Assembly (NCBI RefSeq): GCF_014199525.1
Contig: NZ_JACHNU010000003.1
Location: 124,001 to 188,000 of the forward strand
Direction of reading: 5' to 3'
Origin: Conexibacter arvalis
GTDB lineage: Bacteria; Actinomycetota; Thermoleophilia; Solirubrobacterales; Solirubrobacteraceae
DNA length: 64,000 nucleotides
Both the position numbers and the translations under genes were made by a program. The notes under the pieces are model-generated. The model searched no databases, was not told the DNA's origin, and saw only the letters and a program-made list of their open reading frames with translations. Numbering within the stretch: position 1 is the stretch's first letter; each line of letters begins with the position of its first letter. Shown here piece after piece: positions 6,734 to 18,881 of this stretch.

Positions 6734-6780
6734 AAGCCCTCTGACGGACTCGAACCGTCGACCCCTTCCTTACCATGGAA
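6734..6780 (-). repeat. Left attachment site: displaced 3' end of tRNA-Thr
   Basis: 47 bases identical to 18835-18881, covering the anticodon arm to acceptor end of tRNA-Thr; similarity stops at 6781. The 5' half of the tRNA is absent, so this is not a tRNA gene. It is the attachment core left at the far end when an element integrated into the tRNA gene. Confidence 0.92.
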
Positions 6781-6907
6781 CTTTGGGCGTCATGCCCGCA
6801 GGTCGAGTGCCGGGTTTGCGACTCACGAATTCGCCGCTATGACGGGGCATCGGGGGCAACGTCCATCGGGCGAGCAGGACAAGGCATGTCGCCGGAAGGA
6901 CGCCATG

Positions 6908-8143
6908 TCATGTCACAGATATGTCACGGGCGCGAGCACGCGCGAGCCGACGCCGTCTCGCTGACCGTTCGAGCGTGGCTTTCGCTCTGCGCTCGACCGA
7001 TCTGGCGTACTCCGCATCGGCCCTCGCTCTCTCCTTCGCGTACTCCCTGCGCGCCTCAGCGATGACCTCATCGGCAGTCCGGCGGTCGTTCGGGTCAAGG
7101 TCTTCGATGACGTGGGCGTAGACGCCCATCAACGTCTTGGCATCGTGCCCGAGCCACTTCGCAACCTGCACGATGCTGATTCCCTCATGAAGCCAGAGCG
7201 AGGCCGCAGCATGCCGGAGGTCATACGGCCGCCGGATGTCCACCCCCGCGCGCCGCGTAGCCGCCTTGAAGCGCTTGGCGAAGTTCCGCCAGTCCTCTTC
7301 GGTCCATGGTCTGCCGTCTGCGGTCAGGAAGACGCGAGCCGTCGCCGGAGGGTTGCCGAGCGCGACGCGAGCAGACGCATAGTCGTCCGCGAGCGCTCGA
7401 ACCAGCCGAACGCTGCGTTCCTCTTCGGTCTTCGTCGGCTTCAGCGAGCCGTCCGGGTTGGTTCCGTTCTCGACCTCGATTCTTCTCGTCCCGATCTCGC
7501 TCCAGACCTGCGCTCGAACCTCGCCGGGACGAAGCCCCGAGTACGCGATCACGCTGACGAGGAGAGCGTCCGAGACGTTCATCTCACCGCGCAGGCGTTC
7601 GACGCCAAGCGGCGAGATCGGACGGACTCGTCTCGCCTTTCTGACCTTCGGCTTGTCGACCGCCTTGAAGGCGTTCGATCTGATGCGTCCGAAGCGCACG
7701 GCACGCTCCATGATCTGCTGCCCGAGAGCGAGAACGGATCTGACCATCTCGCGTCCGACACCTGCGGTCAGGAGGTCCGTCTTCAGCCCCTCGACCTCTT
7801 CTGGTCCGATGGCCCGAATCGGCATCGCTGCGATGGGATGGCCTTCGATGTGCTTCCAGCGGTTTCTGTAGTTCCGGTAGGTCTTCTCAGACAGGTCATC
7901 GACCTTCGCCGTCATGTGCTCGGCAGCAAGCTCTCTGAACGTCTGGAGGTCGGCATCAACCTTGTGCAGCGTGCCGGTTTCCTTGCTGCGGTTCATGCTC
8001 AGCTGCCAGGCGACCGCGTCTTCAAGGACGCTGAAGCTCTTCGTTCTGTACTTGCCGCCGCCGACGTGGACGCGGACGCGGATCTTGCCGCTCGGCAGGT
8101 AGTCCATTCCTGCCGGCAGTCTTGTGGGTCTTCTCCTGCTCAT
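6908..8143 (-). CDS. int: Tyrosine-family site-specific integrase
   Basis: 411 residues. An AP2/SAM-like arm-binding N-terminus is followed by a core-binding domain (about 65-160) and a catalytic domain. Catalytic residues: Arg205 in GLRPGEVR, Arg310 in RPYDLRHAA (the usual His two residues before it is Tyr308), His333 in WLGHDA and Tyr342 in GVYAHV. It should recombine the 47-bp attachment core 130 bases away. The start ATG overlaps the upstream stop (ATGA), coupling it to the zinc-finger/HTH gene at 8140-8538. A long basic C-terminal tail follows the Tyr. Confidence 0.92.
   Translation of the reverse strand: MSRRRPTRLPAGMDYLPSGKIRVRVHVGGGKYRTKSFSVLEDAVAWQLSMNRSKETGTLHKVDADLQTFRELAAEHMTAKVDDLSEKTYRNYRNRWKHIEGHPIAAMPIRAIGPEEVEGLKTDLLTAGVGREMVRSVLALGQQIMERAVRFGRIRSNAFKAVDKPKVRKARRVRPISPLGVERLRGEMNVSDALLVSVIAYSGLRPGEVRAQVWSEIGTRRIEVENGTNPDGSLKPTKTEEERSVRLVRALADDYASARVALGNPPATARVFLTADGRPWTEEDWRNFAKRFKAATRRAGVDIRRPYDLRHAAASLWLHEGISIVQVAKWLGHDAKTLMGVYAHVIEDLDPNDRRTADEVIAEARREYAKERARADAEYARSVERRAKATLERSARRRRLARARARDISVT
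6910..6928. repeat. Left terminal 19-bp repeat (possible integrase arm or Xis site)
   Basis: ATGTCACAGATATGTCACG, itself two TGTCAC units 11 bases apart. An identical copy in the same orientation lies at 18742-18760 near the other end. It overlaps the last codons of the integrase gene. Confidence 0.6.
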
Positions 8144-8538
8144 CTCTTCTCCGGCCAACCGAACTCGTCCGTGGCGACCTTCTTCCGGCGTCGTGGGACC
8201 GGTCTTCGGCGGACCTCTGCGCGGGGGCGCGGCAGAGCACCCCTGAACGTGAAGCGGTCCAACCCCTCCCCATCGATGGCCCAGCGGCCTCCTACCCGCT
8301 TGGCGACCCCATCGGCCTCAAGCTGTCTCAGCCATCGACGCAGCGTCCGCTCGCTCTTCTTCGCTCGGACGGCTGCCTGCGAGAGCGTCAACGGAGGATC
8401 GGGAGCGTTCGAGTCGAGTGCTCGCATCCTTCCTGTCCAATTCGCCGGCAGGCAGTCGTCACAGGTCGGGACCTCGCGTCCGTCACCGAGAGCACGGAGA
8501 ACCGTCGCCGGCTTCCCGCAGTTCTCACAAGCCCGCAT
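8140..8538 (-). CDS. Small zinc-finger plus helix-turn-helix protein (possible excisionase/regulator)
   Basis: 132 residues. It opens with MRACENCGKPA and later CDDC, two CxxC pairs that would bind one zinc. A helix-turn-helix-like stretch follows (TLSQAAVRAKKSERTLRRWLRQLEADG), then a basic tail. The ATG at 8538 is chosen because the zinc pair begins there and the longer open frame upstream runs through a terminator hairpin. Directly upstream of and overlapping int, so it may regulate or direct excision. The name is inference. Confidence 0.6.
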   Translation of the reverse strand: MRACENCGKPATVLRALGDGREVPTCDDCLPANWTGRMRALDSNAPDPPLTLSQAAVRAKKSERTLRRWLRQLEADGVAKRVGGRWAIDGEGLDRFTFRGALPRPRAEVRRRPVPRRRKKVATDEFGWPEKR

Positions 8539-8551
8539 GACATATTTGTGA
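8536..8551 (-). repeat. Imperfect internal copy of the terminal repeat
   Basis: Read on the minus strand, TCACAAATATGTCATG matches 14 of 16 bases of the 19-bp terminal repeats, and it overlaps the start codon of the zinc-finger/HTH gene. A nearby TGTCAGTGACA palindrome lies at about 8563-8573. This suggests one protein binds here and at the element ends. Confidence 0.4.
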
Positions 8552-8611
8552 AGTGGACTCCATGTCAGTGACAGTATCGGTCCGCAGGCCGGGACGCAAG
8601 CGTCAGGACGA

Positions 8612-8666
8612 CAGCAACCCCCGCGACCCCGGCAAGGTCCCACCGAGAGGGTCGCGGGGGTTGCTG
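8612..8666. terminator. Long perfect hairpin terminator
   Basis: An 18-base perfect inverted repeat (8612-8629 with 8649-8666) around a 19-base loop. It separates the 8795-10845 minus-strand block from the int pair, so int is probably transcribed from its own promoter. No long U run follows. The rest of 8539-8794 shows no convincing gene. Confidence 0.65.
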
Positions 8667-8794
8667 CTCGCGCACCCTGCGGAAGCTGTACGTCCTGCCT
8701 CGCCGGGTCGGCCCACGACCGGGCCGGCAGGACGCCTATGAGGGCCGGTTCCTGACGCCGGCCACCATCGAGTCTACGGCGGCCTCCGACACGC

Positions 8795-9166
8795 TCAGGC
8801 TGCCTCCGCGAGTACGTAGCCGGCGTTCGAGCTGACGATTCTTCTGCGATTGCTGGCGACGGCTGCCGCCTGGATGACCGTCGCGTGCGGCAGGTCCAAC
8901 GCCTTCCGCACGTCTGAGCGCTTGACCGGCTGCGGGTGGTGTTCCCGGACGATCTCTACGAACCTGTCCGCGACCTCCCCGATGGAGAGCGGTGCGTCGT
9001 CCGGATCACGCTGCTTTCTCAGGGGCGTTCCGTCCGTGGTGAACCAGCTCCGGCGGATGAGATCGATCTCGGCGAAGTGGTCGGCACACAGGTAGCGGCC
9101 GAACGTGCCGTGAGTAGCCGGCCTCTCGCATCCGGCTGAGGATCGGCAGGTAGCGCTATCTGGCAT
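8795..9166 (-). CDS. Hypothetical protein with Cys/His cluster
   Basis: 123 residues, not recognised. The N-terminus holds a possible zinc site (CRSSAGC, then CADHFAEI). The second half resembles a winged helix (VADRFVEIVREH, then KRSDVRKALDLPHATVIQAA). It starts 11 bases inside the upstream regulator gene, so it belongs to the same leftward operon. A DNA-binding accessory protein is a reasonable guess only. Confidence 0.55.
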   Translation of the reverse strand: MPDSATCRSSAGCERPATHGTFGRYLCADHFAEIDLIRRSWFTTDGTPLRKQRDPDDAPLSIGEVADRFVEIVREHHPQPVKRSDVRKALDLPHATVIQAAAVASNRRRIVSSNAGYVLAEAA

Positions 9167-18304: not shown

Positions 18305-18682
18305 ATGCCAACACACGAACCGGAGCTGTCTGAGCCGTACTACGGTGGAGACTTCTACGACGGCGGGACCTACGACAGAACGCCGCCGGGCGCGACGATC
18401 CAGTACTTCTACACGGAGGACGACGGGTATTCGTACGACCCTGACGCGCCCGGCGAAGTCGAATGGCTGACCGAAGCGGTCGCCGCCGGCCCGGACGTGG
18501 GCTGGTCTGATGACGCCGAGCGCCGGAGAACCGGGGAGGCCATCTTGCGCCACTACTTCGCCCGCGAGCCGACGAGGGACGAGTTGGACACGTTCATGGA
18601 GGAGATCGCCCCGTCTCTCCAGGACGGACAGCCCTTTGCGATCGGCACGGACGTTCTCCGCAACGCCGGTCTGGACAGGTAG
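18305..18682 (+). CDS. Acidic hypothetical protein
   Basis: 125 residues, strongly acidic, Tyr-rich N-terminus (YYGGDFYDGGTYDR). Not recognised. Acidic small cargo proteins in phage-like elements are often DNA mimics or inhibitors, but nothing here proves it. A TAGTGT box 6 bases before the ATG and no ribosome site suggest a leaderless message. A strong terminator follows. Confidence 0.5.
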   Translation: MPTHEPELSEPYYGGDFYDGGTYDRTPPGATIQYFYTEDDGYSYDPDAPGEVEWLTEAVAAGPDVGWSDDAERRRTGEAILRHYFAREPTRDELDTFMEEIAPSLQDGQPFAIGTDVLRNAGLDR

Positions 18683-18686
18683 CAAC

Positions 18687-18725
18687 GCGCTTCCAGGGCG
18701 GCGACCCTCGCCGCCCTGGAAGCGC
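18687..18725 (+). terminator. Strong hairpin terminator
   Basis: A perfect 18-base stem (18687-18704 with 18708-18725) and a 3-base loop, immediately after the last rightward gene of the element. Confidence 0.75.
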
Positions 18726-18741
18726 GCCGCCGGAGGCGGCT

Positions 18742-18760
18742 ATGTCACAGATATGTCACG
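18742..18760. repeat. Right terminal 19-bp repeat
   Basis: Identical and same orientation to 6910-6928 (ATGTCACAGATATGTCACG). 75 bases from the right attachment core. Confidence 0.6.
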
Positions 18761-18802
18761 CCTGGGCAACAGCCGCCCATGGCTCCATAGCCCCGAAAAC
18801 GA

Positions 18803-18830
18803 GAAAAGCGCCCGTTACCAGGCGCTTTTC
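18803..18830 (-). terminator. tRNA-Thr terminator supplied by the element
   Basis: A perfect 10-base stem GAAAAGCGCC/GGCGCTTTTC with an 8-base loop, just beyond the tRNA 3' end. On the minus strand it ends in a short T run. It replaces the original host terminator displaced to 6704-6727. Confidence 0.7.
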
Positions 18831-18834
18831 CCCT

Positions 18835-18881
18835 AAGCCCTCTGACGGACTCGAACCGTCGACCCCTTCCTTACCATGGAA
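18835..18881 (-). repeat. Right attachment site within tRNA-Thr
   Basis: 47 bases identical to 6734-6780. It runs from 3' of the discriminator to the anticodon arm, so the element restores the tRNA 3' half on integration. Confidence 0.92.

What the first reader, a model, noticed from the sequence alone, without database searches (positions are those of the whole stretch)
6734..18881. Satellite-like element with prohead protease but no capsid, terminase or tail genes
Seen: 47-bp att repeats in tRNA-Thr, integrase, several phage-type regulators, RepA-like ATPase, serine recombinase, and only one clear phage structural-processing gene, an HK97-type prohead protease. Known: phage satellites carry integrase, control and replication modules plus capsid-hijack genes. 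Inference: this is an actinobacterial satellite that may alter a helper phage's head maturation with its protease and the small putative coiled-coil and fibre-like proteins downstream.
Basis: partly seen in the sequence, partly recalled or inferred. Interest (0 to 1): 0.85.

Follow-up and report, generated by a model that had tools for sequence, protein, structure and literature searches.

The report
Mobile island with lone capsid protease
A 12-kb mobile DNA island in an actinobacterium, and at least four relatives in related bacteria, carry just one virus-particle gene, an apparently active capsid-cutting protease without any capsid, which suggests that these islands act on the protein shells of other phages.

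Summary
Window 6734-18881 is a discrete integrated element: perfect 47-bp att repeats at tRNA-Thr(GGT), with an empty site in a sister genome. It has one virion-type gene, an HK97-type prohead protease (S78), and the genome has no other such protease and no HK97 capsid, TerL or portal match. It is not a decayed prophage. Of 99 proteins from six real phage loci, only the protease matches the element, and the same is true of four related elements in three other genomes. All five share the divergent arrangement 'small p6 gene <- | -> protease' with no capsid found, whereas relatives in IMG/VR phage contigs are all followed at once by a capsid gene. Four of the five lone proteases form one clade. 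Catalytic H71 and S121 are invariant, the predicted fold matches herpesvirus and T4 capsid proteases, and putative self-cleavage sites (GK|SL, AGK|AL) remain, matching a motif enriched in related phages' capsids. My reading is a helper-dependent, satellite-like element whose lone protease acts on the capsid precursor of infecting siphophages, by remodelling or sabotage. The family and its conservation are shown here; substrate, packaging and helper are inferred. It is a new variant of a known kind.

The parts
6734..6780 (.). attL, 47-bp core
   Evidence: perfect repeat
6908..8158 (-). tyrosine integrase
   Evidence: PF00589 E 1.9e-11; phrog_1 E 3.5e-42
8140..8643 (-). small HTH protein, candidate excisionase/regulator
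   Evidence: weak phrog_66 and HTH_17 matches
8795..9166 (-). unknown, zinc-ribbon-like start (p3)
   Evidence: no family; homology to the similarly placed genes of relatives not supported
9156..9557 (-). XRE-type regulator (xre1)
   Evidence: PF01381 E 4e-8; position conserved, but leave-one-out profile weak for this copy (E 0.3)
9550..9798 (-). small unknown (p5)
   Evidence: ORF only
9801..10148 (-). p6, small protein found in all five protease-bearing elements, divergent to the protease
   Evidence: leave-one-out profile rank 1 in 5/5 elements, E 1e-11 to 1e-3
10149..10634 (-). small unknown (p7)
   Evidence: position; homology to relatives not supported for this copy
10585..10845 (-). small unknown (p8)
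   Evidence: position; homology weak
10947..11567 (+). HK97-type prohead (head maturation) protease, S78; invariant H71, S121; motif GGK|SL at 16 and AGK|AL at 163
11567..11683 (+). 38-aa ORF, start overlaps the protease stop; possible coiled coil; only in this copy
   Evidence: sequence; no family
11680..12066 (+). 128-aa beta-rich protein; only in this copy
   Evidence: low-confidence model pLDDT 57; no relatives in phages or IMG/VR
12159..12461 (-). XRE-type repressor-like regulator (xre2)
   Evidence: PF01381 E 3e-15
12442..12675 (+). ribbon-helix-helix-like protein
   Evidence: weak RHH/NikA-like, below cut-offs
12672..12926 (+). XRE-type regulator (xre3)
   Evidence: PF13560 E 5e-12
13174..13371 (+). 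XRE-type regulator (xre4)
   Evidence: PF13560 E 1e-10
13565..14851 (+). RepA/KaiC-like AAA_25 ATPase, probable replication helicase (start uncertain)
   Evidence: PF13481 E 3e-15; related ATPases in G042 and G373 elements
15134..15364 (+). small unknown, relative in the G373 element
   Evidence: 49% identity over 55 aa, E 2e-5
15395..15778 (+). membrane-anchored unknown
   Evidence: ORF with C-terminal hydrophobic helix
16242..17009 (-). small serine recombinase/resolvase
   Evidence: PF00239 E 2e-36; rank-1 homologues in G373 and G042a
17142..17897 (+). secreted lipoprotein-like (start uncertain)
   Evidence: lipobox by eye; DUF4352 only E 0.18; similarly placed lipoprotein in G373, homology not shown
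17914..18267 (+). unknown
   Evidence: ORF
18305..18682 (+). unknown
   Evidence: ORF
18835..18881 (.). attR, 47-bp core within tRNA-Thr
18836..18908 (-). tRNA-Thr(GGT), integration target, intact
   Evidence: ARAGORN and Rfam

Best explanation
The feature is a 12.1-kb integrated, non-self-transmissible, phage-satellite-like element. A tyrosine integrase places it in tRNA-Thr. XRE repressors keep it quiet, the AAA_25 ATPase probably drives its replication after excision, and it uses an infecting siphophage for spread. Its one virion-type protein is a head-maturation protease taken from a siphophage lineage and then inherited with the element. The protease is predicted to be catalytically active and to cut after Lys at GK|A/S-L sites, the type of site found at residues 85-170 of capsid precursors in the phages that own its closest relatives. 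Expressed from the element, out of step with the phage's own late programme or built into its proheads, it would process the helper's capsid/delta-domain precursor and so either divert heads to the element or wreck phage assembly. Shown here: discrete integration, intact conserved protease, no capsid remnants, a recurring family with the same p6<-|->protease arrangement. Inferred: activity, substrate, helper, packaging.
For: Integration: 47-bp att and empty site. Family: five elements in four genomes (window, G042 x2, G373, G446) with p6 divergent from a protease. G373 and G042a are bounded units of about 11.4 and 12.7 kb, each inserted by a large serine recombinase into a response-regulator gene at the same codons. 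No capsid: the capsid model finds nothing beside the lone proteases (G446 is cut by a contig end), while every IMG/VR relative read carries a capsid gene directly downstream. Only the protease out of 99 phage proteins matches the elements. Conservation: H71 and S121 invariant in 28 proteases; model pLDDT 86 matches herpesvirus assemblins (E 1.5e-6) and T4 gp21; four lone proteases form one clade, support 90/96. Substrate: motif [GA]K[AS][LF] at residues 85-170 in 10 of 19 related phage capsids against a shuffled mean of 0.25, maximum 2; the window protease keeps it on both sides of its catalytic domain and no other window element protein has it.
Against: No evidence of packaging, induction or transfer. 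No helper is known, and no HK97 capsid, TerL or portal was found in this genome. No pac/cos site, TerS or capsid-size gene recognised. The element was not found in IMG/VR with the RepA query. The p6/xre1 module also occurs in a sixth, apparently decayed element (G034) without a protease, so the protease is not universal. The K| site is a motif argument and is absent from the two G042 proteases. Sample size is small: five elements in roughly a thousand genomes searched.
Confidence: 0.5

Rival explanations
1. Anti-phage island without particle transfer: the lone protease is a defence effector that cleaves capsid precursors of infecting siphophages too early, aborting assembly. The element spreads by other means or not at all.
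For: Same protease data as above. The related element G042a carries an MrcB_N/NOV_C protein, a domain type seen in restriction-like systems. No packaging genes found.
Against: PADLOC lists nothing in the element. The integrase plus replication-type ATPase plus repressor layout is typical of elements that excise and replicate.
Confidence: 0.25
2. Regulatory protease: the prohead protease has been recruited to cleave an element repressor or p6 and so switch the element on.
For: It lies divergent to a regulator/p6 operon in all five elements.
Against: No window element protein other than the protease has the GK|A/S-L motif, but the true cleavage rule is unknown. No precedent for this protease family known to me.
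Confidence: 0.1
3. Decayed prophage that happens to have lost all structural genes but the protease.
For: Phage-type integrase and regulators; protease about 69% identical to one in an 80-kb siphophage contig.
Against: A lone protease sits in the same place in five elements with different integrases; no remnant of the other phage proteins tested; protease intact with conserved catalytic residues.
Confidence: 0.07
4. Integrative conjugative or mobilisable element of the actinomycete AICE kind that picked up a phage gene.
For: tRNA integration, integrase, replication-type ATPase, serine recombinase.
Against: No FtsK/TraB-like translocase or relaxase family match; AAA_25 protein has no match among 72,556 plasmids. 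The RHH/NikA-like hit is below cut-off.
Confidence: 0.08

Closest known systems
Classical phage satellites (P4-like, PICI/SaPI, PLE)
   Same: Integrase, repressors, own replication-type gene, about 10-18 kb, site-specific integration, no full virion gene set (PMC10803314)
   Different: Those redirect capsids with scaffold-type proteins such as Sid, SaPI scaffold proteins or TcaP (PMC6893505, PMC10945586, PMC10690885). Here the only virion-type gene is a maturation protease, not a scaffold or TerS.
cf-PICI (capsid-forming PICI)
   Same: Carries a head maturation protease
   Different: cf-PICIs encode capsid, protease, portal, connectors and terminases together (PMC10690885). Here capsid, portal and terminase are absent.
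PICMI minimalist satellites
   Same: Small, few genes, no capsid-remodelling gene, helper probably an infecting phage
   Different: PICMIs (Vibrionaceae, beside fis) are described as encoding three core proteins for excision and replication (PMC10803314); host, integration site and gene set differ.
Streptomyces satellites MulchRoom/MiniFlayer
   Same: Satellites of actinobacterial phages; MulchRoom has a tyrosine integrase
   Different: They encode terminase, portal, capsid and scaffold and no obvious replicase (PMC10690885).
P2 gpO (protease and scaffold in one protein, helper of P4)
   Same: Shows that a capsid protease can also direct assembly (PMC6893505)
   Different: gpO is the phage's own protein, not carried by its satellite.

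Membership tests
HK97-family prohead protease (Peptidase S78, PF04586/TIGR01543) | profile match over curated cut-off | tested here: met
   66.2 bits vs 21; 66.9 vs 59
HK97-family prohead protease (Peptidase S78, PF04586/TIGR01543) | conserved catalytic His and Ser, capsid-protease fold | tested here: met
   H71 and S121 invariant in 28; model matches assemblins and 5jbl
HK97-family prohead protease in a phage head operon | encoded next to the capsid gene it processes | tested here: not met
   no capsid beside the lone proteases (G446 is cut by the contig end). This concerns gene context, not membership of the protease family.
Phage satellite (general) | site-specific integrated element with integrase and own regulators | tested here: met
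Phage satellite (general) | lacks a complete virion gene set | tested here: met
Phage satellite (general) | mobilised and packaged by a helper phage | not testable with these tools
   no particle or induction data; no HK97 capsid/TerL/portal in the genome
cf-PICI | own capsid, portal, terminase and protease | tested here: not met
   only the protease present
PICI / P4-like / PLE | capsid-size or packaging redirection gene of those families (Sid, CpmAB, TcaP, TerS, Rpp) | tested here: inconclusive
   no Pfam/PHROGs match in the element; dedicated models of each were not run
AICE | FtsK/TraB-like translocase | tested here: not met
   no such family in the listed element ORFs
Decayed prophage | remnants of structural genes | tested here: not met
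   only the protease of 99 phage proteins matches

The most novel reading that the evidence does not exclude
A previously undescribed family of actinobacterial phage satellites whose single virion-related gene is a head-maturation protease, used to re-time or redirect capsid processing of infecting siphophages: proteolytic rather than scaffold-based capsid piracy. The slot may have been filled from phages at least twice (the G446 protease groups with another phage lineage, AU p=0.036).
Probability: 0.4. Interest if true: 0.78.

Novelty: new variant of a known kind. Interest (0 to 1): 0.6.

Why it matters
Known satellites steal heads with scaffold-type proteins, terminase adaptors or whole capsid modules. 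A conserved island that keeps only the maturation protease would add a way to interfere with phage heads, and it gives a simple question for the bench: does the protease cut a phage's capsid precursor, and does that help the island or kill the phage? It also points to satellite-like elements in an actinobacterial lineage for which the open-access papers I searched describe none.

Tried and rejected
Decayed prophage: tested with 99 phage proteins against five elements; only the protease matched. Helper prophage in the same genome: no PF05065, PF03354 or PF04860 match and only one PF04586; other capsid or terminase families were not searched. Close relatives of the element in genome contigs by protease or RepA peptides: none. 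RepA in phage, plasmid and viral collections: none. Relatives of the beta-rich gene: none; its single-sequence model is too poor (pLDDT 57) to search. p3, p7, p8 and lipoprotein as shared family genes: leave-one-out profiles do not support this for the window copy, so I do not claim it. RepA as a diagnostic gene: related AAA_25 ATPases also occur in non-protease loci. G052 and G372 protease loci: these also carry other head or tail genes and are phage-like elements, not members. PADLOC: nothing in the element. Inverted repeats shared by the divergent intergenic regions: none found. Phylum-wide search: no further close lone proteases noted; its weaker hits (E 1e-19 to 3e-4) were not read for capsid neighbours. 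Paper searches found no lone-protease satellite; subscription papers are not held. Searches with the RepA or p6 alignments in IMG/VR could not run because no stretch was conserved enough.
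Full report
WHAT IS THERE. The two 47-bp repeats are exact (6734-6780, 18835-18881) and unique in the window. The right copy is the 3' end of an intact tRNA-Thr(GGT). In sister genome G005 the same GGDEF gene and tRNA-Thr are present, and the window flanks 6689-6780 and 18835-20842 are contiguous there, so 6781-18834 is a 12.05-kb insertion. G004 also has the tRNA-Thr and GGDEF gene without this element; in G006 a different integrase (33% identity) sits beside the same tRNA-Thr, so the site is a hotspot. 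The element is 66% GC against about 74-75% around it.

GENES. Tyrosine integrase, a weak excisionase-like HTH protein, four XRE regulators, an RHH-like protein, an AAA_25 (RepA/KaiC-type) ATPase, a small serine recombinase, a lipoprotein-like gene, several unknown small genes, and one phage structural-processing gene, the HK97-type prohead protease. No capsid, portal, terminase or tail family was found in the element. In the whole genome the Pfam families for HK97 capsid, TerL and portal give no match, and the protease is the only one of its family.

WHERE THE PROTEASE COMES FROM. Its best relatives (up to 69% identity) are in IMG/VR siphophage contigs. In every one of these read here the protease is followed within about 20-105 nt by an HK97-type capsid gene. 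A model built from those capsids finds none beside the lone proteases.

A FAMILY, NOT A ONE-OFF. Searches of relatives and of genomes in the class, order and phylum gave four more loci with a protease of this group and no capsid: two neighbouring elements on one contig of G042 (L027, L028), one in G373 (L044, another family of the same order), and one cut by a contig end in G446 (L077). In all five, a small gene p6 lies divergent to the protease. A leave-one-out profile test ranks the left-out p6 first among 2,458 ORFs in every case (E 1e-11 to 1e-3). xre1 is also shared by G373, G042a, G042b and G446 (weak for the window), and the small serine recombinase by window, G373 and G042a. p3, p7, p8 and the lipoprotein are similar only in position in the window copy, and I do not count them. 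An AAA_25 ATPase is present in the window, G042b and G373 elements and a distantly similar large gene in G042a, but such ATPases also occur elsewhere. Integrases differ: tyrosine in tRNA-Thr here; in G373 and G042a a large serine recombinase (40% identical to each other) inserted into an OmpR-type response-regulator gene between the same codons, GADD(H/Y)..|..KP. That bounds these two elements at about 11.4 and 12.7 kb. A sixth locus with xre1/p6 but no protease, with a broken p6, exists in G034.

NOT A DECAYED PROPHAGE. 99 proteins from six phage loci were searched against the five element DNAs; only the proteases matched.

PROTEASE LOOKS ACTIVE. H71 and S121 are invariant in 28 sequences. 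The literature gives a conserved Ser/His-dependent mechanism for tailed-phage prohead proteases, shared with herpesvirus protease (PMC7411985); the assignment of H71 and S121 to it, by alignment, is mine. The AlphaFold model (pLDDT 86) matches herpesvirus assemblins (E 1.5e-6) and T4 gp21 (TM 0.53). Most close phage relatives carry a [GA]K[AS][LF] motif after the catalytic domain and some also before it, and 10 of 19 capsids have it at residues 85-170 (shuffled mean 0.25, maximum 2). HK97 protease cuts its capsid after a Lys near residue 103 (my knowledge, not looked up). The window protease keeps the motif on both sides (GGK|SL, AGK|AL), and no other window element protein has it. The G042 proteases lack the motif.

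TREE. Window, G373, G042a and G042b proteases form one clade (90/96), near phage L001-L003; G446 groups elsewhere, with one clade of all five rejected at AU p=0.036 but with a very long branch. So the lone protease is mostly inherited with the element, with perhaps one replacement.

MECHANISM. Best reading: a satellite-like or hitcher element that depends on an infecting siphophage and acts on its capsid precursor with its own protease, re-timing or diverting head maturation. Direction of benefit (packaging versus defence) cannot be decided here. No pac/cos site, TerS or capsid-size gene was recognised. Sizes (11.4-12.7 kb) fit known satellites (averages 9.5-18 kb, PMC10803314). Known satellites use scaffold-type redirectors, terminase adaptors or a full capsid set (PMC6893505, PMC10945586, PMC10690885); none of the papers found describes a lone protease, with the limit that subscription papers are not held.

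LIMITS. The element-specific genes at 11567-12066 remain unexplained.

Noticed in passing
window 4750-6542: AbiEi/AbiEii-like toxin-antitoxin pair (PADLOC E 1e-20 and 4e-8) just outside the left att; GC is also lowered there, so it may be part of an older insertion at the same tRNA hotspot.
   Followed up: partly
L100 4761-6373 (G006): A different tyrosine integrase (33% identity) beside the same tRNA-Thr in a sister genome: the tRNA is a recurrent integration site.
   Followed up: partly
L079 (G052:C134:26001-43825): Another element between a partial copy and the full copy of a tyrosine-phosphatase-like gene, with prohead protease, a P2-I-like tail protein and a weak head-protein match but no capsid model hit; probably a reduced prophage.
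   Followed up: partly
L027 12601-13707 (G042a element): Protein with MrcB_N and NOV_C domains, possibly restriction-type defence cargo.
   Followed up: no
L110 about 7164-12345 (G034): Element with integrase, xre1-like and disrupted p6 module but without protease, possibly a decayed relative.
   Followed up: partly
window 59001-64000: A second stretch of lowered GC (0.62-0.69) at the right end of the window, not part of this finding.
   Followed up: no
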